A stretch of 64,000 nt of DNA from an uncultured Lachnospiraceae bacterium. GTDB lineage: Bacteria; Bacillota; Clostridia; Lachnospirales; Lachnospiraceae. The notes beneath the pieces are model-generated. The model did no database searches. It was not told where the DNA came from and worked only from the letters and a program-made list of their open reading frames with translations. Below are positions 1,676-46,037 of the stretch, piece by piece. A program made the translations under genes and the position numbers. The stretch spans positions 35,928 to 99,927 of the forward strand of contig CALWLY010000008.1 in NCBI GenBank assembly GCA_944381635.1, given 5' to 3'. How positions within the stretch are numbered: position 1 is the stretch's first letter; the number at the start of each line of letters is the position of its first letter.

Positions 1676-1766
1676 CAGCGCGATTTATTTTCTCTCCGCT
1701 ACAGTGCGATTTATCGTTTTTTCTTATACCATAGGAAATGAATTTTCCTAATGGCATAAGAAAAAA
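1676..1766 (+). repeat. Family A hairpin element, copy 1 (diverged)
   Basis: A T6 run at 1717-1722 is followed by an imperfect hairpin (CTTATACCATAGGAAA pairing with TTTTCCTAATGGCATAAG) and an A6 run at 1761-1766. The GGAAATGAA apex is the same as in the other copies. The upstream arm (GCGATTTAT...CCGCTACAG) is only loosely like the conserved arm of the better copies. The A6 side abuts the intrinsic terminator of the DUF4261 gene. Confidence 0.55.
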
Positions 1767-1818
1767 CTGCTGCCTATTTGCAGTTTCCGGAAGGAAAGCT
1801 CTGCAAATACACAGCAGC
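1761..1818 (-). terminator. Intrinsic terminator of the DUF4261 gene
   Basis: Read on the minus strand, GGCTGCTG and TATTTGCAG pair with CTGCAAATA and CAGCAG, followed by TTTTTT. It lies 18 bp after the stop codon. Confidence 0.8.
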
Positions 1819-1836
1819 CAATTTTCTGTCAGAAAA

Positions 1837-2799
1837 TCATTCCTTTTTTTCTTCTGCTTTTGTCTCTGCTTTCTGCTCCTCGGGCTGTTTCATTTCCTTG
1901 CGGTTGCCGGATGCATATTCATTCATGCAAACATCCATCACGCCGCGCACAGGCCTGATCAGAGAAAACGCATAATGGCAGGGCCAGGAAACTTCCCGGC
2001 TCATCTGTCCTTCCTCATCAAGTCCGCTGACCGCAGCACCGTTTTTTACCGGCGCATTGTTTGCAAAGACAAATGCCGCTGTGGAGTATGCATGACGCAC
2101 TACCTCCTGCGGTTTTCTTCCATGGAAGAAATACTGGATATCCGGCAGATTAAAGGCATATAAACCAAGGGTATCCACCACCATATCCTCTGATTCATTG
2201 ATTTTAAAGAAACGTACATTCAAACTGCTGTAAAAAAATACTTCTTCATCCTTATAGGGATTGTTATAAATCTGACCTGCGGAAAGCAGCTTTGCACTGG
2301 GTGTAAACCAAATGGCAATACATCCCGGGAACATACGCATCGCAGCCTTCAGCCATTCCAGAAGGATATTGCATCTTTCCTTATAGGGCAGCCCCATTGT
2401 CATAAAATCCGAAATGATGACACGATATTTGCAGTCTTTTAAGATTGCTTCGCTGTCTTTGCAGCTCCACTGCTGTCTGCGCTGAATCTCCGGAATTTTG
2501 TCGGGATCGAATTCCCCGTAATCTCCCATTACCAGCTGAACCGGATACGTCTTGTCCTCTCTTTGGAATGTTTTTTCCATAAGGGCAAACTCTGTCATAC
2601 GTTTGCCTTCCTCGCCGGCCTGTGTCACGATCTGCGTTTTGCCGAACGTGCGCTCCAATTCCTCTCTCATCTCTTCCGGTTCCGGACGTCTGCCTTTATC
2701 TGTAAACAGCAGCTGTATGGTATACATCTGCCGGAAATCAATTCCTTTTGCCTGTTTTTCTTTCTGTGCCTCAATATTTACTTTCTGTTCTTTATCCAT
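1837..2799 (-). CDS. DUF4261 domain-containing protein
   Basis: The 320-residue protein has no signal peptide or membrane segment. From about residue 25 it reads as a DUF4261-type protein: MYTIQLLFTDKG, a central VIISDFMTMGLPYKER segment, AIWFTPSAKLLSAGQI, and a conserved VVDTLGLYAFNLPDIQYFF block near residue 210. The N-terminal 20 residues and the last 25 residues are charged, Lys/Glu-rich and probably disordered. The family is widespread in Firmicutes and proteobacteria and has no established activity. A GGAGG lies about 12 bases before the ATG. A terminator follows closely, so it is probably monocistronic. Confidence 0.75.
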   Translation of the reverse strand: MDKEQKVNIEAQKEKQAKGIDFRQMYTIQLLFTDKGRRPEPEEMREELERTFGKTQIVTQAGEEGKRMTEFALMEKTFQREDKTYPVQLVMGDYGEFDPDKIPEIQRRQQWSCKDSEAILKDCKYRVIISDFMTMGLPYKERCNILLEWLKAAMRMFPGCIAIWFTPSAKLLSAGQIYNNPYKDEEVFFYSSLNVRFFKINESEDMVVDTLGLYAFNLPDIQYFFHGRKPQEVVRHAYSTAAFVFANNAPVKNGAAVSGLDEEGQMSREVSWPCHYAFSLIRPVRGVMDVCMNEYASGNRKEMKQPEEQKAETKAEEKKE

Positions 2800-3000
2800 A
2801 CCTGCCTGTGACCTCCCTTACATTTATCCGCAAGCGGATTCTTTCTTATTCTATCACACTTTCCTGAAATTTGCGTCATTTTTCTAATATTTTATAAAAA
2901 ATACTTCTGAAAAATGTTATACTATTGGTAAACAATGATAGCGTCACAGATCCAAATACTTTTTTCATCCTTATGAAATCTGATACAGGAGGTACAGCAT

Positions 3001-3555
3001 ATGCGTCTTTTTATTGCCGTCACCTTTTCCCAGCCTATCCAGGAAAAATTAGAGGGAATCCTTTGTCTTTTGAAAGAGCAAGCTTTTGCAGGGAATTTTT
3101 CTTCCCGGGAAAATCTCCATCTCACTCTTGCCTTTCTGGGCGACATTCCATCCTGCCGTCTTTCCCATGTCATAGATGCCATGGAACAGATCCATACAAA
3201 ACCTTTTCTGTGTTCTCTTTCCTCTCTGGGTTGTTTTGGAAAGATGAAAAAAGAAGCCGACTCCCGGGAATCTTCTGTTCTGTGGATCGGCACAGACTAC
3301 TGCCCCGAACTTCTGAACCTGCAGAACGAACTGACTGCATCTTTGCGCAGACACGCAGTCTGGTATGACAGCAAACCTTTCCGTCCTCATGTCACTTTGG
3401 GACGAAACGTGCGTCTGAATCCGGAATTTTCGGAAGAACACTTCTGCCAAAACCTTCCGGAAATGTGTCAGCAGGTCACCGGCATCAGTCTGATGAAATC
3501 CGAACGGAAAAACAACAAAACCGTTTACACCGAACTTTACCGGAAAATCTTGTAA
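3001..3555 (+). CDS. thpR: RNA 2',3'-cyclic 3'-phosphodiesterase (LigT/ThpR family)
   Basis: This 184-residue protein belongs to the 2H phosphoesterase superfamily. The two HxTx motifs that make the active site are at residues 40-43 (HLTL) and 130-133 (HVTL), with the spacing expected for ThpR. Enzymes of this type open 2',3'-cyclic phosphates on RNA to 2'-phosphates. The ATG is preceded by AGGAGG at optimal distance, which fixes the start. It is one of only four genes on the plus strand and converges on rpmF; a family A repeat separates the two. Confidence 0.9.
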   Translation: MRLFIAVTFSQPIQEKLEGILCLLKEQAFAGNFSSRENLHLTLAFLGDIPSCRLSHVIDAMEQIHTKPFLCSLSSLGCFGKMKKEADSRESSVLWIGTDYCPELLNLQNELTASLRRHAVWYDSKPFRPHVTLGRNVRLNPEFSEEHFCQNLPEMCQQVTGISLMKSERKNNKTVYTELYRKIL

Positions 3556-3564
3556 TATCTACCT

Positions 3565-3718
3565 AAAAGTATGCTTTGCAGCGAGCACTAGCGCCAAGCA
3601 TGATTGCCGTCAGACAATATCTACCGGCAATCTCTGATTACCTGCGCGCGAAGTACGCATCTACAATAGAACGTCTTTTTGTACACCGGGAAAGAAACTT
3701 TCCCGGTGTACAAAAAAA
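3565..3718 (+). repeat. Family A hairpin element, copy 2 (full length, diverged)
   Basis: The layout matches copies 4 and 5: AAAAGT start, GCGCC block, ATTGCCGTCAG hairpin, TGCGCGCGAAGTACGCAT arm, CGTCTTTTT, then a 13-bp stem (GTACACCGGGAAA / TTTCCCGGTGTAC, 3681-3711) and A7. The stem sequence is quite unlike the other copies although its shape is the same. It fills the convergent gap between thpR and rpmF, and its A-run is the complement of the rpmF terminator U-run. Confidence 0.75.
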
Positions 3719-3744
3719 GCCTCCCTGAACGATCAGGAAGGCTT
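3712..3744 (-). terminator. Intrinsic terminator of yceD-rpmF
   Basis: On the minus strand AAGCCTTCCTGA pairs with TCAGGGAGGCTT around a TCGT loop, followed by a run of T. It lies about 30 bp after the rpmF stop. Confidence 0.85.
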
Positions 3745-3775
3745 ATTTTCATAATTGTTAAAATTTTCGCTCTTC

Positions 3776-3958
3776 TTATGCTTCTACTTTAACGATTTCA
3801 CGTTTGTTGTAAGAACCACATGTCTTGCAAACTCTGTGAGGCATCATCAGTGCACCACATTTGCTGCATTTTACTAATGTAGGAGCGCTCATTTTCCAGT
3901 TTGCTCTTCTTTTGTCTCTTCTGGATTTAGAAGATTTATTTTTCGGACAGATAGACAT
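3776..3958 (-). CDS. rpmF: 50S ribosomal protein L32, zinc-binding form
   Basis: The 60-residue protein starts MSICPKNKSSKSRRDKRRAN, the characteristic basic N-terminus of L32. It carries the four-cysteine zinc ribbon as CSKCG...CKTCG (about residues 32-48). It is part of the large ribosomal subunit. It begins 2 bp after the stop of the DUF177 gene, the classic yceD-rpmF arrangement of bacteria, so the two are co-transcribed and probably translationally coupled. Confidence 0.97.
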   Translation of the reverse strand: MSICPKNKSSKSRRDKRRANWKMSAPTLVKCSKCGALMMPHRVCKTCGSYNKREIVKVEA

Positions 3959-3960
3959 CG

Positions 3961-4485
3961 TTACACCTCCTTATTTGCATTAAAGACATCCATAATTGCG
4001 GCCATCCGTGGATCAGGAACAAATGTATCACAGCCGCATGCTCCCGTATTCAAATCCTTGCCGCAGACGGGACATAGTCCTTTACAATCCGGCCGGCATA
4101 AGATTTTCATAGGCCAGCAAGTCATAATCTCATTGCATATCAGGCTGTCTATGTTCAGCTCATAACCTTCCATGAAGTCATTCTGCTCTTCCAGCTCTTC
4201 CTCGGAAGCCTTATCTAAAGATACTGCTTTCTGAGAAATATGCAGGTCGAACTCCTTCTCCACTTCTTTCAGGCAGCGGTCACACCGCATCCGGACTTTC
4301 AGCTTTGTCTCAGCCTGCACAAGTGCATGCCCGGGACCATCGTTAACAAGCGTAAGCCTTACCGGCTCCTTCTCTGTCACCGGAAATTCCTGTCCGTGAC
4401 AGGTCACCTTATCCAGTTCCAGTTCCGCTTCTTTGCTGACGGTTCTGCCTTCTGATGTAAAAACATCGGTTAAATTCACTAACAT
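3961..4485 (-). CDS. yceD: DUF177 (YceD-like) protein
   Basis: This 174-residue protein is the usual upstream partner of rpmF. DUF177 shows as RMRCDRCLKEVEKEF near residues 88-102, and a second cysteine cluster (CRPDCKGLCPVCG) near 128-140 gives a probable zinc site. Plant and bacterial homologues are linked to 23S rRNA accumulation, so a role in large-subunit assembly is likely, though the mechanism is not settled. A GGAG lies a few bases before the start. A consensus promoter and a small leader hairpin lie directly upstream. Confidence 0.9.
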   Translation of the reverse strand: MLVNLTDVFTSEGRTVSKEAELELDKVTCHGQEFPVTEKEPVRLTLVNDGPGHALVQAETKLKVRMRCDRCLKEVEKEFDLHISQKAVSLDKASEEELEEQNDFMEGYELNIDSLICNEIMTCWPMKILCRPDCKGLCPVCGKDLNTGACGCDTFVPDPRMAAIMDVFNANKEV

Positions 4486-4499
4486 AGCATACTCCTAAT

Positions 4500-4518
4500 G
4501 AATCCGATTTCCGGATTC
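4500..4518 (-). promoter_or_regulatory. Leader hairpin upstream of yceD
   Basis: A perfect 7-bp inverted repeat, GAATCCG/CGGATTC with a 5-base loop, lies in the short leader between the promoter and the ribosome binding site. It could gate translation of the yceD-rpmF transcript; this is inference. Confidence 0.4.
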
Positions 4519-4534
4519 TTTTCACACTTAAACA

Positions 4535-4563
4535 AGTATACATAGACATTTGGGTTTTGTCAA
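4535..4563 (-). promoter_or_regulatory. Sigma-A promoter of yceD-rpmF
   Basis: On the minus strand: -35 TTGACA (4558-4563), 17-base spacer, -10 TATACT (4535-4540). Both hexamers are near consensus, as expected for a ribosomal protein operon. Confidence 0.8.
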
Positions 4564-4619
4564 CTACTTTTCTCTCTTTTTTCCGACACCTGTTTTTACC
4601 GCCTGTGCCGCCCTTTTTA

Positions 4620-5795
4620 TCACGATGTCTGATCTCTGACAATGGCATGGGAAAGAATATAATCTTTCCATATCTGATAATATTTCGCCTTCAGATGCAC
4701 CTGATCAAAGGTCCAGTCTCCATTCAGGTTTCCATCCTCTCCGCAGAGAACTTCGTTGGGGTCCAGATAAAAGATATTCTGGTTGTCCTGGAACATGGAA
4801 ATTCCCGTATTTCTTATTTCAATATTGGTATTATTAAAAATCGGATCCGTTGCATTTTTTTCGGCTCCCACTTTCATAATTCCCTGCACATAGATGATTG
4901 CCTGAGGCTGAAGTTCCTGTATGTGTTTCACTACCCTGTAGTATTCTTCCAGGAATGTCTCCGCGGTTCCTGTTCCCATCTCATTGATGCCCAGCATCAG
5001 ATAGATTTTTCCGAACTGCTTTTGGGACAATGCTTCTTCTATCGTTATTTTCGGTCCTCCTTTTTCCAGGTATGCCACTTTTTTGGGTTTGGAAAAAATG
5101 TCGTAAATCGTCAAGGATGTCTGGCAGTAAAAATCAGCCGTATCTTCCAGTCCGCCGTATTCATACAGTCCCTGGGTTCTGGAATCACCGATAAACAGTG
5201 CGTCCTCCAGGTAACTTTCATCAACCTGAGAAAATTCTAAAATAACTTCGGTATTCTCGCTTTCTGATTCCGTCTGGTCTTCCTGTCCGCTTTCTGTCTC
5301 AGATGCTTCTCCGTTTTCCTCTGTGCCTGCTTCTGATTCAGCCCCGGAATCCGGCGCATTTTCCTCTGTCAGCCCATTTCCCGAAATTCCATTCCGGGAA
5401 ACATTGTTTGCGGACAATCCGTTTTGAGAAACTCCGCTCTGTGCTTCCGTTTCCTGACTGTCTTCTCCGTCATTTCCCGAAATCATGCTGCCGGTATGAT
5501 CCAAATCAGACTGCCCCTTGGACTCTGTCACAGGAGAAGTTTCTCCTGACGGTGAAGCTTCGGCCTCTGCGTTTTCTGCCTGTCCCATGGTCATAGTATC
5601 CTCATTGACACTCCACGGGTAAATGCCGTCCTTGATTCCCTGAAACATTGCCGCAATTTCCGGCGTCATAATGTCAGAATCTTCGTAATCTTTATATAAA
5701 TCTCTCCGCAAAAAGGAAGCTGCCGTGAACAGAACAAATGTCAGCACCAGCACGCAGACCAGCGGATAATTTTTGAAAAATTTCATTCTTTTCAA
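4620..5795 (-). CDS. Membrane-anchored SGNH/GDSL hydrolase-like protein paired with MBOAT
   Basis: The protein (391 residues) has an N-terminal transmembrane segment at about residues 8-24 and a long low-complexity Ser/Glu/Gly/Asn stretch to about residue 190. An extracytoplasmic SGNH domain follows: ALFIGDSRTQG holds the nucleophile Ser, MLGINEMG is block III, and FDQVHLKAKYY near the end is the DxxH pair. It starts 14 bp after the MBOAT stop, so the two form an O-acylation pair. In such systems MBOAT brings the acyl group across the membrane and the SGNH partner transfers it. The first start is TTG (5795), close behind AGGAAAGGG; an ATG three codons later is equally possible. The acceptor polymer is unknown. 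Confidence 0.8.
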   Translation of the reverse strand: MKRMKFFKNYPLVCVLVLTFVLFTAASFLRRDLYKDYEDSDIMTPEIAAMFQGIKDGIYPWSVNEDTMTMGQAENAEAEASPSGETSPVTESKGQSDLDHTGSMISGNDGEDSQETEAQSGVSQNGLSANNVSRNGISGNGLTEENAPDSGAESEAGTEENGEASETESGQEDQTESESENTEVILEFSQVDESYLEDALFIGDSRTQGLYEYGGLEDTADFYCQTSLTIYDIFSKPKKVAYLEKGGPKITIEEALSQKQFGKIYLMLGINEMGTGTAETFLEEYYRVVKHIQELQPQAIIYVQGIMKVGAEKNATDPIFNNTNIEIRNTGISMFQDNQNIFYLDPNEVLCGEDGNLNGDWTFDQVHLKAKYYQIWKDYILSHAIVRDQTS

Positions 5796-5809
5796 GCATC
5801 CCTTTCCTG

Positions 5810-7210
5810 CTAAAATCGAAAATACATAAACGGATTATTCCCCGCAATAGACAGCCGGTATACACACAGCCAGAATAAAAGGGCCAGTCCTGCGATCACA
5901 TACCACTTTCTGCAGTGTCTCTGGTACCACTCAGACACTGCAGGAATGCAGCACAAAATTCCTGCTGCCATCAGCCATCCGTAATTGGAAATCATTTTTA
6001 CAAAATCGCCCGAATTGATCGCGGTTCCCACACCGAAAAAAGGAAACAGTCTTGCGAAATAAGTTTCCAGTTCTGTGAATCCTGAGGTAATCGCAAAAAT
6101 AATCCATGTCAGCGGAATAAAAAACCATACGTAGATTCTTGCCGCAATTTTATGCTTCTTCAGCCATTTTCCCAGGAAAAGTTTTTCCAGCATAATAAAA
6201 AGGCACAGGGTCAGTCCCCACACGATAAAGTTGGCGCTTCCTCCATGCCAGAGTCCTGTCAGAACCCATACCACCAGCAGGTTCAGAAGAGTTCTTGCCG
6301 TCCCTTTCCGATTGCCTCCAAGGGGAATATACACGTAGTCGCGAAACCAGCTTCCCAGCGTTATGTGCCAGCGGCGCCAGAAATCACTGATGGATGTGGC
6401 AGCATAAGGATGATGGAAATTGCGGATTACAGGATAGCCAAGCATCTGCCCGATTCCGATGGCAATCAGGGAGTATCCGCAGAAGTCAAAGTAAAGCTGA
6501 AGGGAGTAGGAAAAAGCCCCAAGCCAGGCAAGAGGCGTGGATATGCTTTCAAAACCTATGGTCTGAATGTCATTCCACAAAATCGCCAGCTGGTCAGCCA
6601 AAAGCACTTTGGCACTTAACCCAAGCACCACCTTTTTTAAGCCTTCCTCTGCCTGAGACAGCTTAAGCCTCGGGCCATCCAGTCCCTCACAGGCATCTGA
6701 GTAGCGCATAATGGGACCGGATACCATTTGGGGAAACATACACAGATAGGCTCCAAAGCGCCAGAAGGAATGTTCCGCATCCGCTTCCCCCTGGTAAACA
6801 TCCGCCAGATAAGAAATACTCTTAAATGTATAAAAGCTGATTCCCAGTGGGAGCAGGAAATTTGCATCGAATGCATTGGAAATCTTAAAATAAATAAGCA
6901 GCCCCGCATTGGCACATACTCCTGCCGCCAGCCAGAGCTTTCTCTTTCTCTCCGAATCCGTATCCAATCCCAGGCCTGTCAGATAGTTAAATACGGACAT
7001 TCCCAGCAAAAGAAAGACATAAAACGGCTCCGCCATAGCGTACATGATAATGCTTGCCACAAAAAGCAAAGCATTTCTCCCCTTTTTCGGAACCGCAATA
7101 TAGCACAGCAAAAAAACAGGCAGGAACCGAAAGAGAAATTCCAGACTGCTGAAAACCATGCTATTTTCATTTAATAAATTTCCCAAATCAATTCCTGCCA
7201 CTTTTATCAC
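5810..7210 (-). CDS. MBOAT family O-acyltransferase (AlgI/DltB-like), first copy
   Basis: This is a polytopic protein of about 450-466 residues. It shows the MBOAT signatures SFYTFKSISYLADVY, the loop WRRWHITLGSWFRDYVYIP followed by LGGNRKG, and the catalytic His in LTGLWHGGSANF. MBOAT proteins of the AlgI type move acetyl groups for O-acetylation of extracellular polysaccharide. The longest frame uses a GTG at 7210 with GGAG only 2 bases away. An ATG at 7159 gives MVFSSLEFLFRFLP, the usual family N-terminus, and is the more natural start. The downstream SGNH gene is its likely partner. A second, different MBOAT is at 61156-62568. Confidence 0.9.
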   Translation of the reverse strand: MIKVAGIDLGNLLNENSMVFSSLEFLFRFLPVFLLCYIAVPKKGRNALLFVASIIMYAMAEPFYVFLLLGMSVFNYLTGLGLDTDSERKRKLWLAAGVCANAGLLIYFKISNAFDANFLLPLGISFYTFKSISYLADVYQGEADAEHSFWRFGAYLCMFPQMVSGPIMRYSDACEGLDGPRLKLSQAEEGLKKVVLGLSAKVLLADQLAILWNDIQTIGFESISTPLAWLGAFSYSLQLYFDFCGYSLIAIGIGQMLGYPVIRNFHHPYAATSISDFWRRWHITLGSWFRDYVYIPLGGNRKGTARTLLNLLVVWVLTGLWHGGSANFIVWGLTLCLFIMLEKLFLGKWLKKHKIAARIYVWFFIPLTWIIFAITSGFTELETYFARLFPFFGVGTAINSGDFVKMISNYGWLMAAGILCCIPAVSEWYQRHCRKWYVIAGLALLFWLCVYRLSIAGNNPFMYFRF

Positions 7211-7367
7211 AACTCCAATTCTGATGTATTTTTCTGTCAGCTATTTAAGCATAATACAATCTGCCGGTTGTGAAAAGAGGTAATTTTTTTAAGTTTTTAT
7301 TACGATTTTTTAAGAATTATTTCACTGCTTATTGGATTACCCCAAAAAGCTAAGGACTCTTTCTTTT

Positions 7368-8567: not shown

Positions 8568-8628
8568 CCCCAATACCACCCTTTCTTGCACAAGGAAACC
8601 GAGAATCCTTCCGGATCTCTCTTAAACC

Positions 8629-8792
8629 GTAACAGTTTTACCCGCGCCATTCGAAAAACCGCACTGACGTGCTTACTGCGGCTGCGCCGCTGTTTTCCTC
8701 ATATACTGGCGCTCAGCTCATCTGTGCATCCGGAAACGGATTTTTATGCAAGCATAAATCCTTTTCCGGATAACAGATGGGAAAACTGTTAC
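8629..8792 (+). repeat. Family B inverted-repeat element, copy 1
   Basis: The element begins GTAACAGTTTTACC and ends GGGAAAACTGTTAC, an 11-bp perfect terminal inverted repeat. Inside are GCACTGACGTGC, GCGGCTGCGCCGC and a long hairpin (ATCCGGAAA.GGATTTTTATGC, apex AA, then GCATAAATCC.TTTCCGGAT), enclosed by CATCTG/CAGATG. The second copy is at 54891-55055. This copy ends one base before the pta stop codon. Confidence 0.85.
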
Positions 8793-8793
8793 T

Positions 8794-9899: not shown

Positions 9900-9945
9900 G
9901 AGCGAAAAACGGAAAATGTTGTATAAAAAGATGCACATTTTCCAT

Positions 9946-10072
9946 TACTGTTCACTCCGTTCCAGTAACCTGCAAAAATCCATTTAAAATTGCCTTCGGC
10001 AATGGGATTTTGCATTTCTGAATCATTTTTTTACGAACTTTGCAGTAAATGCAAAGTCCTGTATGAACAGTA
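9946..10072 (-). repeat. Family C inverted-repeat element, copy 1
   Basis: It begins TACTGTTCACTCCG and ends TATGAACAGTA, an imperfect terminal inverted repeat. Inside are the hairpin ATTGCCTTCGGCAAT and TTTGCAGTAAATGCAAA. The second copy, in the opposite orientation and nearly identical, is at 39625-39755. It lies between the divergent pta and tmcAL genes. CCAT flanks both ends here, possibly a short target duplication. Confidence 0.8.
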
Positions 10073-10197
10073 CCATTTTCCATTTCCGTCCCCATTGTTT
10101 GTAAATATGTACAAAAATGGGAACTATCCGTCAGCATCCGCCAGGAAAACCAGGCAGCGGCGGATTTTTGAATACTGAAAAAAGGAAGGATCCATTT

Positions 10198-11481: not shown

Positions 11482-11549
11482 CGATAAAGCTGCGAAAAAT
11501 TATAGCTCTTGGGCGTTTCGCCCTCTTTACACTCTTTGCATGAATACCG

Positions 11550-17899: not shown

Positions 17900-18385
17900 C
17901 CGCAAAAACACGGCTGGTCATGGATTGACATGCAAGCATGTACTCCATAGCCTTTTCATCTATGATACCTGCGGACTGCTCCGCACTTCGTGCTCTCTCA
18001 GTCCTGAAAACATTCGAATTCCGCCCTGTTCGGGCTCCTTTCTCATGTTTTGCGGGTCACAAAGTCTTGGATTGACATGCAAGCATGTCATCCACAGCTT
18101 TTTCATCTATGATACCTGCGGACTGCTCCGCACTTCGTGCTCTCTCAGTCCTGAAAACATTCGAATTCCGCCCTGTTCGGGCTCCTTTCTCATGTTTTAT
18201 GAGTTGCCCGACAAATGAGCCTGATGTCGATTTTTCCGTGCTACGCACTCCCAAAATCGGCAAAAACATTCACAATTCGCTCATTTTTCTTCGAAAAATG
18301 GCTACTTGCTTATGTTTTTCGGGACCCATAGACATAAAAATATATGCAAGCATGTATTTTTATGTCCATTTGTCCCTTGGCTCAT
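17900..18385 (+). repeat. Array of structured repeats (family D), about 130-150 bp units
   Basis: Two nearly identical units (about 17917-18046 and 18066-18198) share GATTGACATGCAAGCATGT, the CTATGATACCTGCGGACTG segment, and GGACTG...CAGTCC enclosing GCACTTCGTGC, then GCCCTGTTCGGGC. A third unit (about 18200-18385) keeps the layout with different stems: CGATTTT/AAAATCG enclosing GTGCTACGCAC, CATTTTTC/AAAAATG, and a long hairpin GACATAAAAAT...ATTTTTATGTC with apex ATGCAAGCAT. The array fills most of the 630-bp gap between the zinc-finger gene and nagA. No convincing gene is present in it. Confidence 0.8.
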
Positions 18386-20650: not shown

Positions 20651-20724
20651 AGCGCGAAACGCGCATCCACAGCGGAGTGTCTTTTTTATACGTTAGGAAA
20701 TGAAGTTTCCTAACGTATAAAAAA
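20651..20724 (+). repeat. Family A hairpin element, copy 3 (5'-truncated)
   Basis: GCGCATCCACAGCGGAGTGT is followed by T6, a perfect 13-bp stem (ATACGTTAGGAAA / TTTCCTAACGTAT, 20688-20718) and A6. The 5' half of the full-length element is missing. The A6 directly abuts the nagE terminator stem at 20725. Confidence 0.8.
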
Positions 20725-20749
20725 CCGGAAGCCCTTCGGGGCTTCCGGC
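20719..20749 (-). terminator. Intrinsic terminator of nagE
   Basis: On the minus strand CCGGAAGCCC pairs with GGGCTTCCGG and is followed by TTTTTT. A second strong hairpin (AGACACTCTG/CAGAGTGTCT, about 20776-20801) lies between it and the nagE stop. Confidence 0.85.
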
Positions 20750-20839: not shown

Positions 20840-22309
20840 TTACAGCATTTTCTTCATCTCGTCAGCTACAAACTGAACTTTGGTACCAACGATAACCTGA
20901 ACAGAAGTTTTGCTCGGACGGATAACTCCGGCAACACCAGCAGATTTGATCTTCTTCTCATCTACTTTGGTATAATCTTTTACTTCCATTCTCAGTCTTG
21001 TGATGCAGTTGTCAAGAGAAGTAATGTTTTCTTTTCCGCCAAGGCCTTCCAGAACGATTTCAGCTACTTTTGTGAAGTCGTTGTTAGCCAGCACTACTGT
21101 CTTCTCGCTTTCCAAATCATCGTCATCCTCACGTCCAGGAGTCTTCAGATCGAATTTTACGATTGCAAAACGGAATACAACGTAGAATACGATAAATGCT
21201 GCGATACCAAGCGGAATGATCATCCATGTATTCTGAGCTGCCGGCAGGGATGCAGAGAACAGTAAGTCTGTTGCACCTGCGGAGAAACTGAAGCCTGCAC
21301 GGAAACCAACCAGAACAGTGATAACTGTGAAAATACCATACAGTAAAGCATAGATTACATACAGAGCGGGAGCTAAGAACATGAAACCGAATTCAAAGGG
21401 TTCTGTAACACCGCAGATGAATGCACAGAGAGCTGCAGAAGCAACCAGACCGATTGCAACTTTTTTCTTGTTGCTCTTTGCTGTGTGAATCATAGCTAAA
21501 GCTGCGCCAGGAACACCGAACATCATACAAGGGAAGAAACCGGACATGTACATACCCAGATCCCATGTAACGTCTGCGGAAGTTTTTCCTGCCCAGAAGT
21601 TTGTCAGGTCACCAAGACCGATTGTGTCAAACCAGAATACGTTGTTCAGTGCGTGATGCAGTCCCAGAGGGATTAACAGACGGTTCAGGAATGCATAGAT
21701 ACCTGCGCCAACTGCGCCTAAACCAACGATTCCTTCTCCTAATGCTACCAGTGCGCCGAATACCAGCGGCCATATGAACAGAAGGATTACGGAAACTACA
21801 ATGGATACGACACCTGCAACAATGGCAACAGAACGTTTGCCGCTGAAGAAGGACAGCCAATCGGGAAGTTTTGTTCCCTTAAATTTGTTGTAGCAAGATG
21901 CACCGATAATACCAGCAAGGATACCGATGAACGGGTTCTGGATTTTCTGGAATGCCAGGATAGCATCTGTGTTTTCTGCCAGAGAAGGAATGATTGTTGT
22001 TACAACACCTTCAGAAAGCAGATTTGTGATCATTAACCAGGAAACCATCGCTGCCAGACCGCCTGTACCGTCGTTGTCAGCCATACCAACGCCGACACCG
22101 ATTACAAACAGGATTGCCATGTTGTCAATCAGAGCACCGCCTGCTTTTACAAGGAAAAAGCCGATCTGCTGTGCAATACCGGTGATATCACCGCCCTGCA
22201 TGGTTGCCGGACACAGAAGATATCCGATTCCCATCAGGATACCGCATATCGGAAGACATGCAACGGGAAGCATCAGGGACTTCCCTAACTTTTGTAAATA
22301 TTTCATCAT
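20840..22309 (-). CDS. nagE: PTS transporter, GlcNAc/glucose-type EIIBC
   Basis: The 489-residue membrane protein imports and phosphorylates a sugar. Residues 1-385 are the polytopic EIIC domain, starting YLQKLGKSLMLPVACLPICG, with the conserved GVTEPFEFGFMFLAP loop of the glucose superfamily. Residues about 410-489 are EIIB with the phospho-cysteine in SLDNCITRLRMEV. There is no fused EIIA; EIIA-Glc is encoded separately at 24510-24995. Adjacent nagA and nagB point to N-acetylglucosamine as the substrate, which is inferred from context. It starts with tandem ATGs. Confidence 0.88.
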   Translation of the reverse strand: MMKYLQKLGKSLMLPVACLPICGILMGIGYLLCPATMQGGDITGIAQQIGFFLVKAGGALIDNMAILFVIGVGVGMADNDGTGGLAAMVSWLMITNLLSEGVVTTIIPSLAENTDAILAFQKIQNPFIGILAGIIGASCYNKFKGTKLPDWLSFFSGKRSVAIVAGVVSIVVSVILLFIWPLVFGALVALGEGIVGLGAVGAGIYAFLNRLLIPLGLHHALNNVFWFDTIGLGDLTNFWAGKTSADVTWDLGMYMSGFFPCMMFGVPGAALAMIHTAKSNKKKVAIGLVASAALCAFICGVTEPFEFGFMFLAPALYVIYALLYGIFTVITVLVGFRAGFSFSAGATDLLFSASLPAAQNTWMIIPLGIAAFIVFYVVFRFAIVKFDLKTPGREDDDDLESEKTVVLANNDFTKVAEIVLEGLGGKENITSLDNCITRLRMEVKDYTKVDEKKIKSAGVAGVIRPSKTSVQVIVGTKVQFVADEMKKML

Positions 22310-36162: not shown

Positions 36163-36302
36163 AAAAAGTGTACGCCCTGGCGTACACTCGCGCCGAACGC
36201 AATTGCCGTCAGGCAATATCTTCTTTTTGCGTGAGTGCGCATCCACAGCGGAGCATCTTTTTTAATGGGCTGGGAAATGGAATTTCCCAGCCCATTAAAA
36301 AA
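36163..36302 (+). repeat. Family A hairpin element, copy 4 (full length, reference copy)
   Basis: The order is AAAAAGTGTACG/CGTACACT hairpin, GCGCCGAACGC, ATTGCCGTCAGGCAAT hairpin, GCGTGAGTGCGCATCC, ACAGCGGAGCATC, T6, a perfect 14-bp stem (AATGGGCTGGGAAA / TTTCCCAGCCCATT, 36264-36296) and A6. The A6 is the complement of the antiporter terminator U-run. It lies in the gap between the K+/H+ antiporter and the ABC exporter genes. Confidence 0.85.
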
Positions 36303-38306: not shown

Positions 38307-38355
38307 GTGTTCATCCCCCTGAATCTATGCTATGTTTCCAGTTTCTCCTGTTATC

Positions 38356-39489: not shown

Positions 39490-39624
39490 TTTCCAACACT
39501 CCTTCTCCAAAAATTTTCGTAGTTACTCCTCTCTTTTTCCGATGTCTCTCTTTCATTATACAACTTTAACCGGCTTCCAAGTCAATAAAAAATTGATGAT
39601 TACAGCCGGCATGGCAACCGTCCT

Positions 39625-39755
39625 GTTACTGTTCATACAGGACTTTGCATTTACTGCAAAGTTCGTAAAAAATGATTCAGAAATGCAAAATCCCATTGCC
39701 GAAGGCAATTTTAAATGGATTTTTTGCAGGTTACTGGAACGGAGTGAACAGTAAC
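39625..39755 (+). repeat. Family C inverted-repeat element, copy 2
   Basis: It begins GTTACTGTTCA and ends TGAACAGTAAC, an 11-bp perfect terminal inverted repeat. Internal sequence is nearly identical to copy 1 (9946-10072) read in the opposite direction. GTCCTG occurs just outside both ends. It lies between the aldo/keto reductase and hom. Confidence 0.85.
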
Positions 39756-39779
39756 ACTGTCCTGCCGCTGAACTATTGC

Positions 39780-41066: not shown

Positions 41067-41258
41067 ATCAGTCACTCCCTGTGTTCGCCATGCGAACCTT
41101 TTCTATTTGTGTTATGTTCCTACTTTAACACTTTATTTCCATATAGTAAAGACATCTGTTTTTTTGAGAAAAACTTTTTTCTTTTAATGTTGTTTTAATT
41201 TTTCTCTTTTATGATTAAAGCATAACAAAGAGAAATCAAAGAAAGGCAGGTAAAACTT

Positions 41259-41843
41259 ATGAAAAAAAGAACTATGATAGTAACAGCTTCCGCTCTGGCA
41301 CTTGCGCTCACCGCAGTCCTTGGTACTTCCGTACTCGCAGCATCTTCTGCAGATTATATCGGAGAAGAAAAGGCCAAAAACATCGCCTTTGAAAATGCAG
41401 GTCTGACCGCTTCCGACGTTTCCTATGTATGGAGCAGACTGGATTATGACGACGGACGTGCAGAATACGACGTGGAATTTCTTTACGGAACCAATGAATT
41501 TGACTACGAAATCGATGCTCTCACCGGCACCATTCTTTCCATCGACCTGGATGCAGAATATTACAATTCTTCCATTTCACAAAATGGCGTTAAGGGTACG
41601 ACAGATGCTTCCTCCACCCAGACAAACGGCGAATATATCAGCGCCGAAGAGGCAAAGCAGCTTGCTCTGGAGCATGCAGGACTGTCCGCTTCCGATGTAA
41701 AATATTTCGAATCTGATTTTGACTATGACCATGGCAGAGCCGTTTACGAACTGGAGTGGAGATGCGGCTGGAAAGAATACTCCTACGATATTGACGCATC
41801 TGACGGTGCTATCTTAAGATTTGAATCCGAATACGATGACTGA
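41259..41843 (+). CDS. Secreted protein with two PepSY domains
   Basis: The 194-residue protein has a signal peptide (MKKRTMIVTASALALALTA to about residue 31, cut near VLAASSA). Two PepSY repeats follow: YIGEEKAKNIAFENAGLTAS... and YISAEEAKQLALEHAGLSAS..., each ending in a YDIDA-type strand. PepSY domains are inhibitory or chaperone-like modules in peptidase propeptides and in stand-alone secreted proteins. Here no peptidase domain is attached. AAAGGCAGG precedes the ATG. A two-way terminator follows at 41994-42041. Confidence 0.85.
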   Translation: MKKRTMIVTASALALALTAVLGTSVLAASSADYIGEEKAKNIAFENAGLTASDVSYVWSRLDYDDGRAEYDVEFLYGTNEFDYEIDALTGTILSIDLDAEYYNSSISQNGVKGTTDASSTQTNGEYISAEEAKQLALEHAGLSASDVKYFESDFDYDHGRAVYELEWRCGWKEYSYDIDASDGAILRFESEYDD

Positions 41844-41892
41844 AACTTTTGTTTTCAGGATCTGATAGGGGAAGTTCCTTCCCCATCCGATC

Positions 41893-41992
41893 GCGCGATG
41901 CGTACAGCTTGCGACTGCGCCGCTCGCTGTACGTTACCCGGTAAATGGCCGCTCATGCGAGCATGACGGCCGCTTTGCCGGGCTTATCGCGC
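41893..41992 (+). repeat. Three-way-junction inverted repeat between convergent genes
   Basis: An outer helix GCGCGAT (41893-41899) / ATCGCGC (41986-41992) encloses two arms. Arm 1 is GTACAGC/GCTGTAC (41902-41908, 41926-41932). Arm 2 is CCCGG/CCGGG (41937-41941, 41978-41982), then GGCCG/CGGCC (41947-41951, 41967-41971), then TCATGC/GCATGA with apex GA. All helices are perfect. It lies in the 3' region of the PepSY gene. No coding frame is evident. Confidence 0.65.
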
Positions 41993-41993
41993 A

Positions 41994-42041
41994 AAAAGCC
42001 CCTGGGAGCCGATACATAAAGCTCCCGGGGCCTTCTTTTTT
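41994..42041. terminator. Bidirectional intrinsic terminator
   Basis: GCCCCTGGGAGC pairs with GCTCCCGGGGCC, with T-rich tracts on both sides (TTCTTTTTT on the plus strand, TTTTT on the minus strand). It serves the convergent PepSY gene and the 102-residue protein gene. Confidence 0.8.
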
Positions 42042-42048
42042 GCATGGT

Positions 42049-42357
42049 TTATATGGTGGGAATGCTGTCTTTTTCCACGTCATGCACTTCTTTGTATATC
42101 ATCATAAACCAGAGAAGTATCTGTTTTTCCTCCAGCGCGTTTTTCTGATATTCCAACAGTTTTTCTCTTGGAACATCCTCCTCAAAATCGATGGCCTTCC
42201 TGATCAGCTCACTTTCCCCTATCATTCCTGCTATCTGCTTCTTCTTCTCCCAGGGAAGCCGATACATCTTTTCCACTCCATCTTCCCGGCTTAAAATATC
42301 TAAAAGCTCCTGCATCAGTCTCTCACAATTTTTTGCGCTGCTATCCTTTCCTGTCAT
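42049..42357 (-). CDS. Hypothetical 102-residue protein
   Basis: Not recognised. The protein is highly charged and mostly helical, with no signal peptide or membrane helix. It contains LMQELLDILSREDGVEKMY and a Glu/Lys-rich second half ending VHDVEKDSIPTI. A GGAGG lies just before the ATG (CAGGAGGAGAGGCAA), and the frame has codon use like its neighbours, so it is likely a real gene. It ends at a strong terminator. It lies downstream of the ModE-type gene, separated by a repeat-filled gap. Confidence 0.6.
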   Translation of the reverse strand: MTGKDSSAKNCERLMQELLDILSREDGVEKMYRLPWEKKKQIAGMIGESELIRKAIDFEEDVPREKLLEYQKNALEEKQILLWFMMIYKEVHDVEKDSIPTI

Positions 42358-42662
42358 TTGCCTCTCCTCCTGTTTCCTTTCGTCTTGTCAAAAACCTCTT
42401 ATTTAAGAGTATACTACATTTATTTAGTATGTCAAATAGATTAAAATCCACATGATATATTGTGTTTTTCCATGCAACTTCTCTATTGTGAAAAAGAATC
42501 CGATAGCGTGTTTTGCCGCTCTTTTCTATGTGGTAAAAAGTAAACTTTTTCATCGTATAAAAAAGCCAGGCATCGGTATGCATAAAAGATATTTTATCCC
42601 TTATCCATCCATGTCTGGCTTTTTTGTTTCTATTCTGATATATTCTGAAAACAGGTACGCGA

Positions 42663-42688
42663 GTGTGCGCCAAGGCGCACACTTTTTT
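42663..42688 (+). terminator. Terminator-like hairpin next to family A copy 5
   Basis: GTGTGCGCC pairs with GGCGCACAC across AA and is followed by TTTTTT. A similar hairpin ending in T6 occurs at 42796-42822, at the other end of the repeat. The remaining part of the 42358-42820 gap, 42358-42660, shows only A/T-rich sequence with no gene recognised. Confidence 0.6.
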
Positions 42689-42822
42689 ATGCAATAGGAA
42701 ATTTCATTTCCTATTGCATAAAAAAGACGCTCCGCTGTGGATGCGCACTTCGCGCTCAAGGAAAATGGTTGCTGACGCAACCGCGCTCCGGCGCAAGTGT
42801 GCGTCAAGGCGCACACTTTTTT
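42683..42822 (-). repeat. Family A hairpin element, copy 5 (full length)
   Basis: In minus orientation: AAAAAAGTGTGCGCC/GACGCACACTT hairpin, GCGCCGGAGCGC, GGTTGCGTCAGCAACC hairpin, GAGCGCGAAGTGCGCATCC, ACAGCGGAGCGTC, T6, a perfect 13-bp stem (ATGCAATAGGAAA / TTTCCTATTGCAT, 42689-42719) and A6. It matches copy 4 along its whole length. The T6 at 42817-42822 overlaps the stop codon of the ModE-type gene. Confidence 0.85.
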
Positions 42823-43168
42823 ACAGTTCTTCCCGGTATTCCGGAAAATATTTTTCAAAGCTTTCCCGGGCGCTGTTTCTGACCTCTTCTTCCATTTTTT
42901 TATATCTTGCGATCAAAGAAATTCCTTCCTGCGTTACGCTGCATTTTCCACCGGTCTTTCCGCCATGCCTGCGTGTCAGAAGTTCATAGCCAAGCTCTCC
43001 TTCCGCCCGATTCAGGATTTTCCAGCCCTTACTGTAGGACATTCCCATCTGAGCACACGCCTCTTTCACGGATTCGGTCTGAACAATTCCCTCCAGCAGC
43101 GTTACCAGTCCCGGTCCGAAAACCAGTTCATTTTTGTAAACCTGTACCTTCACCACAGGATAAAACAT
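42821..43168 (-). CDS. ModE-type winged-helix regulator (DNA-binding domain only)
   Basis: The 115-residue protein is a LysR-like helix-turn-helix of the ModE N-terminal type: GPGLVTLLEGIVQTESVKEACAQMGMSYSKGWKILN, then LGYELLTRRHGGKTGGKCSVTQEG. It lacks the molbindin (MOP) domains that sense molybdate in E. coli ModE. Such short forms are common in Firmicutes. It lies 41 bp downstream of modC and is co-directional with modABC. A palindrome overlapping the modA promoter (46072-46095) is a candidate site for it. Confidence 0.88.
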   Translation of the reverse strand: MFYPVVKVQVYKNELVFGPGLVTLLEGIVQTESVKEACAQMGMSYSKGWKILNRAEGELGYELLTRRHGGKTGGKCSVTQEGISLIARYKKMEEEVRNSARESFEKYFPEYREEL

Positions 43169-43209
43169 CTTGGCTTCCCTCTTTTCCTCTGTCTTTGTTG
43201 TTTCTTCTC

Positions 43210-44307
43210 TCAGTCTGTCAGCAGAAGTATTTTTTCCGGCTCTACTTCAACCATCCGGGGAAGGAAATTGCGGGAAACATCGTCCATCTTCATCCACATA
43301 CTTCCTGCCGGATTGGCTGCATTTCGAAACAGAACGGTTCTCTCAAAGGGAGATTTGATCTCCTCTTCCACCACAACGGGAAAACAATTGCATTCTTTTT
43401 GCACTCTGTCCGTCTCTGAATTCCCGCTTTCGCCCGCTCCTTTCCCGGCAGTATCCTGTGATGGCACTTCCAGAAAATCATGAGCTCTGATTCCCACAGT
43501 GGATAGATTTTCGGGAATCCTTCCTGCAACAGTCAGTTCCACTCCCCACTCCAAAGCTCTGACGCGGTTTTCTCCTGTTTTTACGGCCTTTGAAATATTT
43601 TTGCACCCGGTCAGCCTGGCTGCGGCCGTTTTTTCCGGACATAAAAACAATTCTTTGGTATCTTTACAGATTCTGTTGCATCCTTCCTCCACGATCATGG
43701 TCCTGTCGCAAAGGCGATAAATTTCATCTCTGTCATGACTGACGATAATGGTACTTCCGCCAAACTGTTTCAGGTGCTCTCTTAACTCTAACTGCAGTTC
43801 TTCCTTCAAGTAACTGTCCAGCGCGGAAAAGGGCTCATCTAACAGCAAAACATCCGGCTCCGATGCCAAAATTCTTGCCAGAGCAGTCCGCTGCTGCTGT
43901 CCGCCGGAAAGTCTGTATGGATATTGATTTTCCAGTCCGCTCAGATGAAAGCGTTCTGTCATTTCCGCAATTTTTCTTTTTTTCTCTGCTTTGCTTCCCC
44001 TCATACCTGCCCCGATATTTTCCGCCACTGTCATATTCGGGAAAAGCGCATAATTCTGAAACAGGTATCCCACTTTTCGCTTTCGGGGCGGCAGATCCTT
44101 TTTTTCTGCTTTGTCAAACAGCACTCTCCCGTTGGCCTGTATCCTTCCGGAATCCGGTGTCACAATACCTGCGATAGCTTTTAATGTCATGCTTTTCCCG
44201 CTGCCGGAGGCCCCCAGAATTCCCAGGCATTCCCCGTCCATGGAAAATTCCATATCCATAGTAAAACTTTTCAGTTTTTTGGAAAACTGTACTTCCAGTC
44301 TGCTCAC
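43210..44307 (-). CDS. modC: Molybdate ABC transporter, ATP-binding protein
   Basis: The 365-residue ATPase energises molybdate or tungstate import. Motifs are GILGASGSGKSMTLKAIAG (Walker A), the Q-loop in YLFQNYALFPNM, YRLSGGQQQRTALAR (signature) and VLLLDEPFSALD (Walker B). The C-terminal 120 residues form a TOBE-like domain. The GTG at 44307 follows AGG of the overlapping modB end and gives VSRLEVQFSKKL; a frame opening at 44349 would lie inside modB. It is followed by the ModE-type gene. Confidence 0.92.
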   Translation of the reverse strand: MSRLEVQFSKKLKSFTMDMEFSMDGECLGILGASGSGKSMTLKAIAGIVTPDSGRIQANGRVLFDKAEKKDLPPRKRKVGYLFQNYALFPNMTVAENIGAGMRGSKAEKKRKIAEMTERFHLSGLENQYPYRLSGGQQQRTALARILASEPDVLLLDEPFSALDSYLKEELQLELREHLKQFGGSTIIVSHDRDEIYRLCDRTMIVEEGCNRICKDTKELFLCPEKTAAARLTGCKNISKAVKTGENRVRALEWGVELTVAGRIPENLSTVGIRAHDFLEVPSQDTAGKGAGESGNSETDRVQKECNCFPVVVEEEIKSPFERTVLFRNAANPAGSMWMKMDDVSRNFLPRMVEVEPEKILLLTD

Positions 44308-44311
44308 GTCA

Positions 44312-44986
44312 TTACCTCCGGTTAAATTTCTGAAAAGCCCAGGTGACATAGTTCATTCCTGTGACAACCAGAAAAGAAATCAGCACCAGTATTGCCACAT
44401 ACACAAAGGCGCCTTCCATATTGCCTGCTGACACTTCCGAGTAAACCGCCAAAGGAAGCGTCCTCGTTTTTTCCTGGATATTTCCTGCTATCATCGCTGT
44501 TGCGCCAAATTCTCCAAGGCCTCTGGCAAAAGCCAGGATTCCTCCGGAAAGGATTCCGGAAAGAGCATTGGGAAAAAGAATTTTCCAGAAAACCGACCAC
44601 TCTGACATCCCGAGAGTTCTCCCCGCATAGAGGAGATTCTTATCCACCTGCTCAAAAGCCCCTCTGGCCGAGCGATACATAAGCGGAAAGGAAATGACCG
44701 TCGCTGCCAACACCGTTGCAGACCAGGAAAAAGCAATTTTTACGCCGAAATAGTCCAGAAAAAATTGCCCTACCGGTCGTTTCACACCAAAAATATACAG
44801 CAGAAAAAATCCTGCCACGGTGGGCGGAAGCACCAACGGAAGCGTGAGAATCCCGTCACAAATCATTTTCAGTTTTTCGTTTCGGATACTTTCCACAAGC
44901 CAGGCAGCGGCAATTCCTGTAAAAAAAGTGATGACAATTGCCGCTGACGCCGTTTTCAATGAGATTAAAACCGCTGACCAATCCAT
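44312..44986 (-). CDS. modB: Molybdate ABC transporter, permease
   Basis: The 224-residue protein has five to six membrane helices and the inner-membrane binding-protein-dependent loop ARTLGMSEWSVFWKILFP...GILAFARGLGEFGA, which contacts ModC. LPLVLPPTVAGFFLLYIFG is typical of ModB. The start at 44986 (MDWSAVLISLKTAS) fits the family. It lies 22 bp after modA and its stop is 4 bp before the modC start. Confidence 0.94.
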   Translation of the reverse strand: MDWSAVLISLKTASAAIVITFFTGIAAAWLVESIRNEKLKMICDGILTLPLVLPPTVAGFFLLYIFGVKRPVGQFFLDYFGVKIAFSWSATVLAATVISFPLMYRSARGAFEQVDKNLLYAGRTLGMSEWSVFWKILFPNALSGILSGGILAFARGLGEFGATAMIAGNIQEKTRTLPLAVYSEVSAGNMEGAFVYVAILVLISFLVVTGMNYVTWAFQKFNRR

Positions 44987-45008
44987 TTTTCCCATCCTCT
45001 ATCCAGGT

Positions 45009-45920
45009 TTACTGGTTCTGGTATTCCATAAATCCATATTTTTCAAAGACTGCCAATGCTTCCTCAGACTGCAGGAATTCCACAAATTTCTCTGCCATTT
45101 CTTTGTTCTGGGAATCGGAAATAACCCCTACCGGATAGATTGCAGGCTCTGCCAGGCTGTCTGCAGGCGCCTCCGCAATCACTTTTACCTTGTCCGTGGT
45201 TGCCGCGTCTGTCGCATACACGATTCCGGCATCCGCACTTCCCTCTGCGACCCAATTGAGCACTTCTGTCACGTTGGTTCCAAGGCTTGCCTTAGCTAAA
45301 ACTTCATCCCATATGCCAAGGTTCGTCAAAGCTTCCTCGGAATACTGTCCCACCGGAACGCTGGCCGGATCGCCGATCGCTATGGTTTCCGCTTTGGTAA
45401 TATCCGTAAACTCTTTCAAATCCAATGTAGAATCCGCCGCTGTGATCAGTACAATTTTATTTTCCAACAGATTGACAACCGAAGCTTCCTCCACCAGACT
45501 CTCATCCACCAAGGCATTCATCTGTTTCGTTGCCGCAGACATAAATACCTCTGCCCCGATTCCTTCCTCAATCTGCGTCTGCAGTTTTCCTGAGCTGTCA
45601 TACGTTCCTTCCACTGAAACAGACGGATACATTTCCTCAAACATAGGAATCAGTTCATCCTCAAAAGAATATTCCAGACTGGCTGCCGCTGCAATCAACA
45701 GTTCGGAAGGCTCTGCATCTGTCGCTTCTTCCGCTGCAGCCTGCTGGCTCTGTGCCTCTTCCGTTACAGAATCTTCCTGAGAAGACTCCAAGGTCTCCTC
45801 TGCCGCCTGCGTGGATGCTGCCGTTTCTGTTCCTCCGTTAGCGCTGTCTGCACATCCTGCCAGCATGCTTCCTGTAAGCAATGCCGCAAATAAAATTCCA
45901 ATGCATGTTTTCTTTCTCAT
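45009..45920 (-). CDS. modA: Molybdate-binding lipoprotein
   Basis: The 303-residue protein captures molybdate (or tungstate) outside the membrane. The signal peptide MRKKTCIGILFAALLTG ends in the lipobox SMLAGC. A Ser/Glu/Ala-rich linker of about 60 residues precedes the binding domain, which starts ELLIAAAASLEYSFEDELIP and contains GKLQTQIEEGIGAEVFMSA and IAIGDPASVPVGQYSEEAL. The start at 45920 is clear; an in-frame extension to 46091 runs through a family A repeat and is not coding. GGAGG is just upstream. Confidence 0.94.
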   Translation of the reverse strand: MRKKTCIGILFAALLTGSMLAGCADSANGGTETAASTQAAEETLESSQEDSVTEEAQSQQAAAEEATDAEPSELLIAAAASLEYSFEDELIPMFEEMYPSVSVEGTYDSSGKLQTQIEEGIGAEVFMSAATKQMNALVDESLVEEASVVNLLENKIVLITAADSTLDLKEFTDITKAETIAIGDPASVPVGQYSEEALTNLGIWDEVLAKASLGTNVTEVLNWVAEGSADAGIVYATDAATTDKVKVIAEAPADSLAEPAIYPVGVISDSQNKEMAEKFVEFLQSEEALAVFEKYGFMEYQNQ

Positions 45921-45965
45921 GTTTATCCTCCATTTTACCGCTTTTGTCTTTGTAAGCTGCATTAT

Positions 45966-46037
45966 AAAAAGTATACGCATCCACAGCGGAGCGTCTTTTT
46001 TATGCAGTAGGAAAGAAATTTCATATTGTATAAAAAA
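45966..46037 (+). repeat. Family A hairpin element, copy 6 (internally deleted)
   Basis: AAAAAGTATAC is joined directly to GCATCCACAGCGGAGCGTC, T6, an imperfect stem (ATGCAGTAGGAAA / TTTCATATTGTAT) and A6. It lies in the 5' leader of modABC, between the predicted promoter and the modA start. Confidence 0.75.

What the first reader, a model, noticed from the sequence alone, without database searches (positions are those of the whole stretch)
1676..46037. Six-copy intergenic element (family A) with a fixed arm and a rewritten hairpin, sitting beside terminators
Copies at 1676-1766, 3565-3718, 20651-20724, 36163-36302, 42683-42822 (reverse) and 45966-46037. Five share an arm like GCGCATCCACAGCGGAGCG(T)C-T6 (the first is only loosely similar), and all six end in a hairpin and A6. 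The stem differs almost entirely from copy to copy (for example GTACACCGGG, ATACGTTAGG, AATGGGCTGGG, ATGCAATAGG), yet is paired in each, with a constant GGAAA/TTTCC top. In four copies (1-4) the A6 is the complement of the U-run of a neighbouring gene's intrinsic terminator, and copy 5 abuts another hairpin-T6. This could be an insertion element that targets terminators, or a structured RNA/terminator module. No enzyme for it is in the window.
Basis: seen in the sequence. Interest (0 to 1): 0.75.

Follow-up and report, generated by a model that had tools for sequence, protein, structure and literature searches.

The report
Terminator-targeting mobile element, self-rewriting hairpin
A DNA element of about 150 bases, with its core sequence at 95 places in this genome and relatives of it in many related genera, sits just beyond the stop signals at gene ends, is missing from the same spots in some relatives, and ends in a hairpin whose two arms change together, likely because one arm is copied from the other; the enzyme that would move it is unknown.

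Summary
The fixed arm occurs at 95 places in the genome; a covariance model recovers all six window copies. The hairpin is paired in 97.9% of 805 cells, with 99 both-side changes against 18.7 in shuffles. Copies that are 3% or less apart elsewhere can carry different, still paired stems, and some loops are inverted (6 of 66 own hairpins in a minority orientation). A hairpin follows the A-run in 62 of 84 copies against 47 of 400 control A-runs, with fixed polarity in 59 of 83. It is mobile: two copies of a relative (G102) are absent from the syntenic places in its sister G304, and six near-identical copies end exactly where the host A-tract begins. So the base of the hairpin is element T-run against host A-tract. 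Related elements occur in 42 of 120 genomes, one per genus. No enzyme was found; Y1 transposases do not follow the element. I read it as a non-autonomous terminator-homing element, a new variant of the small interspersed repeat kind, its hairpin probably re-matched by template switching.

The parts
1676..1766 (+). Copy 1: other arm type (GTGCGATTTATCG), T-run, hairpin, A-run
   Evidence: model match 1703-1764, E 7.8e-8; sequence
1767..1820 (-). Terminator-like hairpin beside copy 1, beyond the - strand gene 1837-2799
   Evidence: sequence; ORF
3565..3718 (+). Copy 2: full-length type with left-end hairpin, middle, arm, hairpin and A-run
   Evidence: model match 3652-3718, E 2.1e-13; sequence
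3719..3742 (-). Terminator hairpin beside copy 2
   Evidence: sequence GCCTCCCTGAACGATCAGGAAGGC
20651..20724 (+). Copy 3: short type; arm and hairpin
   Evidence: model match 20658-20724, E 2.2e-17
20725..20748 (-). Terminator hairpin beside copy 3, beyond the - strand PTS gene 20840-22309
   Evidence: hairpin -19.8 kcal/mol for locus L026; Pfam PTS_EIIC
36163..36302 (+). Copy 4: full-length type
   Evidence: model match 36234-36302, E 1.6e-18
42683..42822 (-). Copy 5: full-length type, reverse
   Evidence: model match 42682-42749(-), E 2.1e-19
42658..42689 (-). Left-end hairpin of a second copy of the family, next to which copy 5 sits; the two overlap in the shared A-run
   Evidence: 32-nt repeat of 42792-42823 at 94%
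45966..46037 (+). Copy 6: short type, imperfect hairpin
   Evidence: model match 45972-46038, E 1.6e-13

Best explanation
It is a mobile element of about 75-150 nt with no gene of its own in the copies seen, placed beside intrinsic terminators in one main orientation and absent from the same terminators in some relatives, and its end hairpin changes on both arms at once, likely because one arm is re-copied from the other by template switching. Shown: the position and polarity of the copies, filled and empty sites at terminators, and, in six recent copies, that element sequence ends where the host A-tract begins, so that the foot of the hairpin is element T-run against host A-tract. Inferred: the T-run probably helps to choose the site by pairing with the host A-tract; mismatches left at the border or arising later are then predicted to be corrected arm to arm during replication, which would also invert loops; the left-end hairpin with its T-run on the other strand would act as a fresh terminator on which the next copy can land. 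Unknown: the enzyme.
For: 95 arm places, reversed control 0. Covariation: 16 of 18 pairs changed on both sides, 99 cells vs 18.7 shuffled, score 0.409 vs 0.164 shuffled and 0.066-0.115 slid. Stem divergence 0.27 per site in the 15 pairs of copies 0-3% apart elsewhere and 0.26 in the 690 pairs 25-60% apart. Loop inversion: 39 of 66 own hairpins belong to loop types whose inverse also occurs, shuffle mean 11.9, 1 of 500 shuffles as high; 6 of 66 own and 6 of 20 other hairpins are in the minority orientation. Hairpin next to the A-run 62 of 84 vs 47 of 400 controls; right-hand gene points at the element in 59 of 83. Empty sites: two G102 copies absent from syntenic G304 DNA, one class IV aminotransferase terminator and one CTP synthase leader (genes by Pfam). 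Border: next base after the shared element end is C, T, A, C, C, T in six near-identical copies, and C in the empty allele of the first site. T-run variants are matched by the 3' partner in 26 of 35 rows.
Against: No enzyme and no longer, gene-bearing copy was found. Template switching is not observed; selection for a paired RNA or DNA hairpin could give much of the covariation: G-U pairs are 24 of 1116 core cells, not far below the 28 of 794 in host hairpins, and 80 of 98 both-side changes are transitions, which can go through a wobble. Of the 15 closest pairs several share copies, and at least five keep the same stem. 22 of 83 hairpins have a mismatch; 9 of 35 T-run variants are unmatched. 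22 of 84 copies have no hairpin of -10 kcal/mol beside them. Left flanks align poorly at the aminotransferase and CTP synthase sites, site 1 of G102 has some 70 extra unaligned nt before the element, the host hairpins at site 2 differ between the two species, and a further G299/G301 site has an arm-like remnant in the genome without the element. Arm matched to host base is seen in a single recent copy (G304).
Confidence: 0.62

Rival explanations
1. A functional RNA module (double terminator, insulator or attenuator) kept by selection: arms covary because the RNA must fold, and copies sit at gene ends because they work there.
For: Structure conserved across 19 other genera plus own, 20 of 33 predicted pairs with both-side changes; left-end hairpin followed by a T-run on the other strand; the same gap-pgk border is filled in own and in G302; transition excess.
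Against: Near-identical recent copies at unrelated genes and absent in the sister species; inverted loops; a patchy spread, 42 of 120 genera.
Confidence: 0.15
2. A REP-like element moved as single-stranded DNA by a Y1 (IS200/IS605 or RAYT) transposase, with the T-run as guide and the A-tract as cleavage site.
For: Hairpins at both ends, no target duplication seen, and a guide-like T-run beside the hairpin foot (the comparison with IS608 guides is recalled).
Against: Y1 in 27 of 42 element-bearing and 42 of 78 other genomes; Y1-free genomes hold 10 to 21 matches (G002, G062, G066, G089, G114). Own has one IS200-like gene without matching ends.
Confidence: 0.1
3. A retro-element moved in trans by a group II (IIC) reverse transcriptase, which also targets terminators.
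For: Same kind of target and same side of the hairpin; group IIC targeting as described in passages of PMC3240598 and PMC7161350.
Against: No group II intron match in the window or in the six loci scanned; read from the terminator, the element does not begin with the group II 5' consensus (recalled). Reverse transcriptases were not surveyed.
Confidence: 0.08
4. Copies exchange their ends by homologous recombination; new stems are only reshuffled old ones.
For: Tandem units with unmatched arms (locus L056) look like crossovers inside arrays.
Against: 66 distinct 5' arms in 83 copies, 52 of them perfectly matched by their own 3' arm; recombination would separate arms rather than match them.
Confidence: 0.05

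Closest known systems
Pneumococcal BOX, RUP and SPRITE repeats (PMC3049150, passages)
   Same: Small, structured, intergenic, high-copy repeats thought to be non-autonomous; SPRITE has an 18 bp duplex and resembles a terminator
   Different: There MITEs are described with terminal inverted repeats and target duplications; here none was seen, insertion is at the terminator A-tract, and the stem is rewritten between near-identical copies
REP elements with GTAG or CGTC tags (PMC3733652, abstract, passages and section 6)
   Same: Palindromes with variable paired stems, many copies, CGTC class without a transposase; own copies often have CGTC before the T-run
   Different: REPs are 20-40 bp with 8-9 bp stems and a CCA tail in the CGTC class; here the stem with T/A runs is about 18-22 bp, the CGTC tag is lost in most other genera printed
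Group IIC introns (PMC3240598 and PMC7161350, passages)
   Same: Insertion beyond the hairpin of an intrinsic terminator, in fixed orientation
   Different: No ribozyme, reverse transcriptase or intron match found; about 150 nt
Template-switch mutations in hairpins (PMC8794818, abstract and passages)
   Same: Both-arm changes, several at a time, and inverted loops
   Different: Described there in rRNA genes, where a compensatory change with loop inversion was extremely rare; here in copies of a mobile element

Membership tests
MITE | Terminal inverted repeats | tested here: not met
   The two ends in the six-copy alignment (GAACAAAGCATG and CCTATTAAA) are not inverted copies (by eye)
MITE | Target-site duplication | tested here: not met
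   No repeat of the right border at the left border in six recent copies; A-runs on both sides in own are ambiguous
MITE | Parent insertion sequence with the same ends | tested here: not met
   G102: 5 left ends, all in about 140-nt elements; own: 12 left ends without the main arm, no second right-end arm within the 2.5-3 kb held downstream
REP/RAYT | Associated Y1 transposase with matching ends | tested here: not met
REP (CGTC) | CGTC tag at the hairpin foot and unpaired CCA tail | tested here: not met
   CGTC frequent in own, not kept in most other genera printed; a host A-tract follows instead of a tail
Group II intron | Intron RNA fold and reverse transcriptase | tested here: not met
   No Rfam match in window or six loci; element too short to encode one. 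Loci elsewhere were not scanned
Known RNA family | Rfam match at the gathering score | tested here: not met
   Window at gathering: only Clostridiales-1, elsewhere; six loci at E up to 1: tRNA genes in flanks and sub-threshold microRNA-like hairpin matches
Pneumococcal SPRITE/BOX/RUP | Sequence homology to the pneumococcal repeats | not tested
   Their models were not at hand

The most novel reading that the evidence does not exclude
A terminator-homing element that carries one arm of its end hairpin's foot and borrows the other from each host terminator: it finds sites by pairing its T-run with the terminator's A-tract, moves without any dedicated transposase of a known family, rebuilds a perfect hairpin at each site by arm-to-arm copying, and plants a new terminator that is itself a landing site, so that copies stack. 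It has spread through a whole bacterial family.
Probability: 0.3. Interest if true: 0.86.

Novelty: new variant of a known kind. Interest (0 to 1): 0.72.

Why it matters
It offers a family-wide set of hairpins, some very recent, in which both-arm changes, border re-matching and loop inversions can be counted, so that template switching as a source of compensatory change becomes directly testable in bacteria. It shows that strong covariation, usually read as proof of a functional RNA, can accompany a mobile DNA hairpin. It marks intrinsic terminators as a landing site for an element with no known enzyme, and it may add or change terminators at gene borders such as the CTP synthase leader and the gap-pgk border.

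Tried and rejected
Target-site duplication of the A-run: considered from the first two empty-site pairs, dropped after the six recent copies showed none. Direct repeat of the 3' arm at the left flank: own-versus-others difference small (6.76 vs 6.40, permutation p 0.03) and led by tandem units L046 and L056. Scarcity of wobble pairs as proof of a DNA-level process: weakened by the host hairpins. A Y1 transposase or a longer autonomous copy. Phage carriage: no exact 19-mer in viral contigs. First terminator scan demanded a T-run on the far side (34 of 84 copies, 4 of 57 left flanks, 81 of 1110 control A6 sites) and was replaced. Sister species of own genome and of G109: none held. Literature: searches listed no paper that I recognised as this element; that is all the ground for calling it undescribed.
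Full report
Observation. The window lies in a 3.08 Mb genome of 49 contigs. The arm CGCATCCACAGCGGAGCGTCTTTTTT, with up to 3 mismatches, hits 95 places (51 forward, 44 reverse) against 0 for the pattern read backwards. The loci were fetched; a script found 92 copies after removing repeats (whose printout was cut, so not every one was seen by eye). A model of the right end from 45 copies recovers all six window copies and gives 150 matches in the genome, the number of candidates scored; that list holds opposite-strand matches of the same palindromes and is not a copy count.

Anatomy. With the arm forward, a full copy reads: A-run, left-end hairpin (GTGTGYGCC..GGCRCACAC in own), a middle with one or two small hairpins, GAGTGCGCATCCACAGCGGAGCGTC, T-run, stem with GGAAA/TTTCC top, A-run, and then usually a host hairpin. 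Short forms lack the middle. A left-end motif occurs at 52 places; 12 of these had no right end of the main type, and 7 of the 12 carry a strong palindrome behind another arm, such as GTGCGATTTATTG. In a 462 kb sample (one contig, 120 kb of a second and the window) there are 20 near-perfect palindromes of 15 bp or more; 14 have T on the 5' and A on the 3' side, 1 is terminator-like.

Covariation. On 45 copies, 16 of 18 pairs show both-side changes, 99 cells against 18.7 in shuffles; 97.9% of 805 cells are paired; the score is 0.409 against 0.164 shuffled and 0.066-0.115 for slid partners. The 98 Watson-Crick both-side changes counted are 80 transitions and 18 transversions. The unpaired arm diverges by 3.8% per site and the 5' side of the stem by 13.8%. 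In 83 copies with a clear hairpin the covariation covers stem and T-run and fades at the C of GTC. Stem change is decoupled from the rest: the 15 pairs of copies 0-3% apart elsewhere differ by 0.27 per stem site, the 690 pairs 25-60% apart by 0.26. These 15 pairs share copies among themselves, and at least five of them keep the same stem, two being tandem units. Core cells: 1062 Watson-Crick, 24 G-U, 30 mismatches; 52 of 83 copies perfect, 66 distinct 5' arms; host hairpins next door have 28 G-U in 794 folded pairs. So wobble scarcity alone does not decide between DNA and RNA.

Loop inversion. Loops occur in both orientations: TGAAG 15 and CTTCA 2, GAA 13 and TTC 1, AAA 4 and TTT 2, GCA 1 and TGC 1 in own; GAA 6 and TTC 4, AAA 2 and TTT 2 in relatives. 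In own 39 of 66 distinct hairpins belong to such types; shuffled loop types average 11.9 and 1 of 500 reached 39. The minority orientation is 6 of 66 in own and 6 of 20 in relatives. Monttinen and Loytynoja (PMC8794818, abstract and passages) call a compensatory change with loop inversion the strongest support for template switching and found it extremely rare in rRNA genes. This, with the decoupling, is my ground for the template-switch reading, which stays an inference.

Terminators. A hairpin of -10 kcal/mol or better starts within 6 nt of the A-run in 62 of the 84 copies examined (of 92) against 47 of 400 control A-runs. A right-hand gene was called, by a crude ORF rule, for 83 of 92 copies and points at the element in 59. 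Read from that gene the order is gene, terminator hairpin, T-run, element. In the same reading the left-end hairpin is followed by a T-run: A in 60, 58, 61, 52 and 45 of 65 copies at the five places before it. Copies stack: window copy 5 abuts another left end, and 29% of 62 left flanks match a right-end arm against 1.7% of 300 control contexts.

Mobility. G102 holds five full copies, all at 0 mismatches over a 33-nt left-end pattern. In a 10.6 kb stretch with two of them, G304 of the same genus is syntenic (84% over the main block) and lacks both: where G102 has 213 nt between matching blocks, G304 has 4 nt at site 1 and about 75 nt at site 2. Some 70 nt before the element at site 1 have no counterpart, and the host hairpins at site 2 differ. 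Six copies (five of G102, one of G304) vary at only four places between GAACAAAG and CCTATTAAA; the next base is C, T, A, C, C, T, followed by A5-6 and different host sequence. The empty site 1 reads ATCAAAAAAG where the filled one reads TTAAACAAAAAAG. So the A-tract is host sequence. The five G102 copies have G in the 5' arm opposite that base whatever it is; the G304 copy has A opposite T. I read the two unmatched ones as fresh and the G304 copy as re-matched; one case is not proof. Two further pairs agree: a class IV aminotransferase terminator (G299 empty, G301 filled, own filled) and a CTP synthase leader (own empty, G302 filled). A PGK/GAPDH border is filled in own and G302 (the four genes by Pfam). 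A further G299/G301 site has an arm-like remnant in the genome without the element and is ambiguous.

Spread. The exact 19-mer occurs in 14 stretches labelled Eisenbergiella or Lachnospiraceae and 3 unrelated ones without the hairpin. The strict pattern hits 3 of 299 genomes, own included; the model hits 42 of 120 genomes, one per genus, own included. Of 29 loci numbered from that search I printed 26, and 21 of these have GGAG in the arm. On 19 of them and two own copies, 20 of 33 predicted pairs have both-side changes.

Enzyme. None found. Own has one Y1 transposase, IS200-like, with other ends. Y1 occurs in 27 of 42 element-bearing genomes and 42 of 78 others (my count from the lists). Reverse transcriptases were not surveyed.

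Judgement. Mobility and terminator targeting are shown at a few sites and strongly supported for the family. Arm-to-arm copying is the best account of paired rewriting and inverted loops but is inferred. How it moves is open.

Noticed in passing
window 8624-8772 and 54912-55060: Inverted pair of 149 nt, 85% complementary: another repeat class.
   Followed up: no
window 9945-10075 and 39624-39754: Inverted pair in three blocks, 89-100% complementary.
   Followed up: no
window 17966-18384, minus strand: Two neighbouring Clostridiales-1 RNAs (RF01699) above the gathering score.
   Followed up: no
window 63778-64000: Tandem repeat with a 72-nt unit running to the window end.
   Followed up: no
L056 (own genome, contig 5, 45.3-45.6 kb): Three tandem copies; the first two have unmatched hairpin arms, the last is matched.
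   Followed up: partly
L105 about 1625-1790 (genome G302): An element lies between the leader hairpin and the start of a CTP synthase gene, so its left-end hairpin might affect that gene.
   Followed up: partly
L197 about 560-630 and L194 about 600-670 (own genome): Copies with other arms whose 5' side pairs beyond the T-run into the host terminator sequence.
   Followed up: partly
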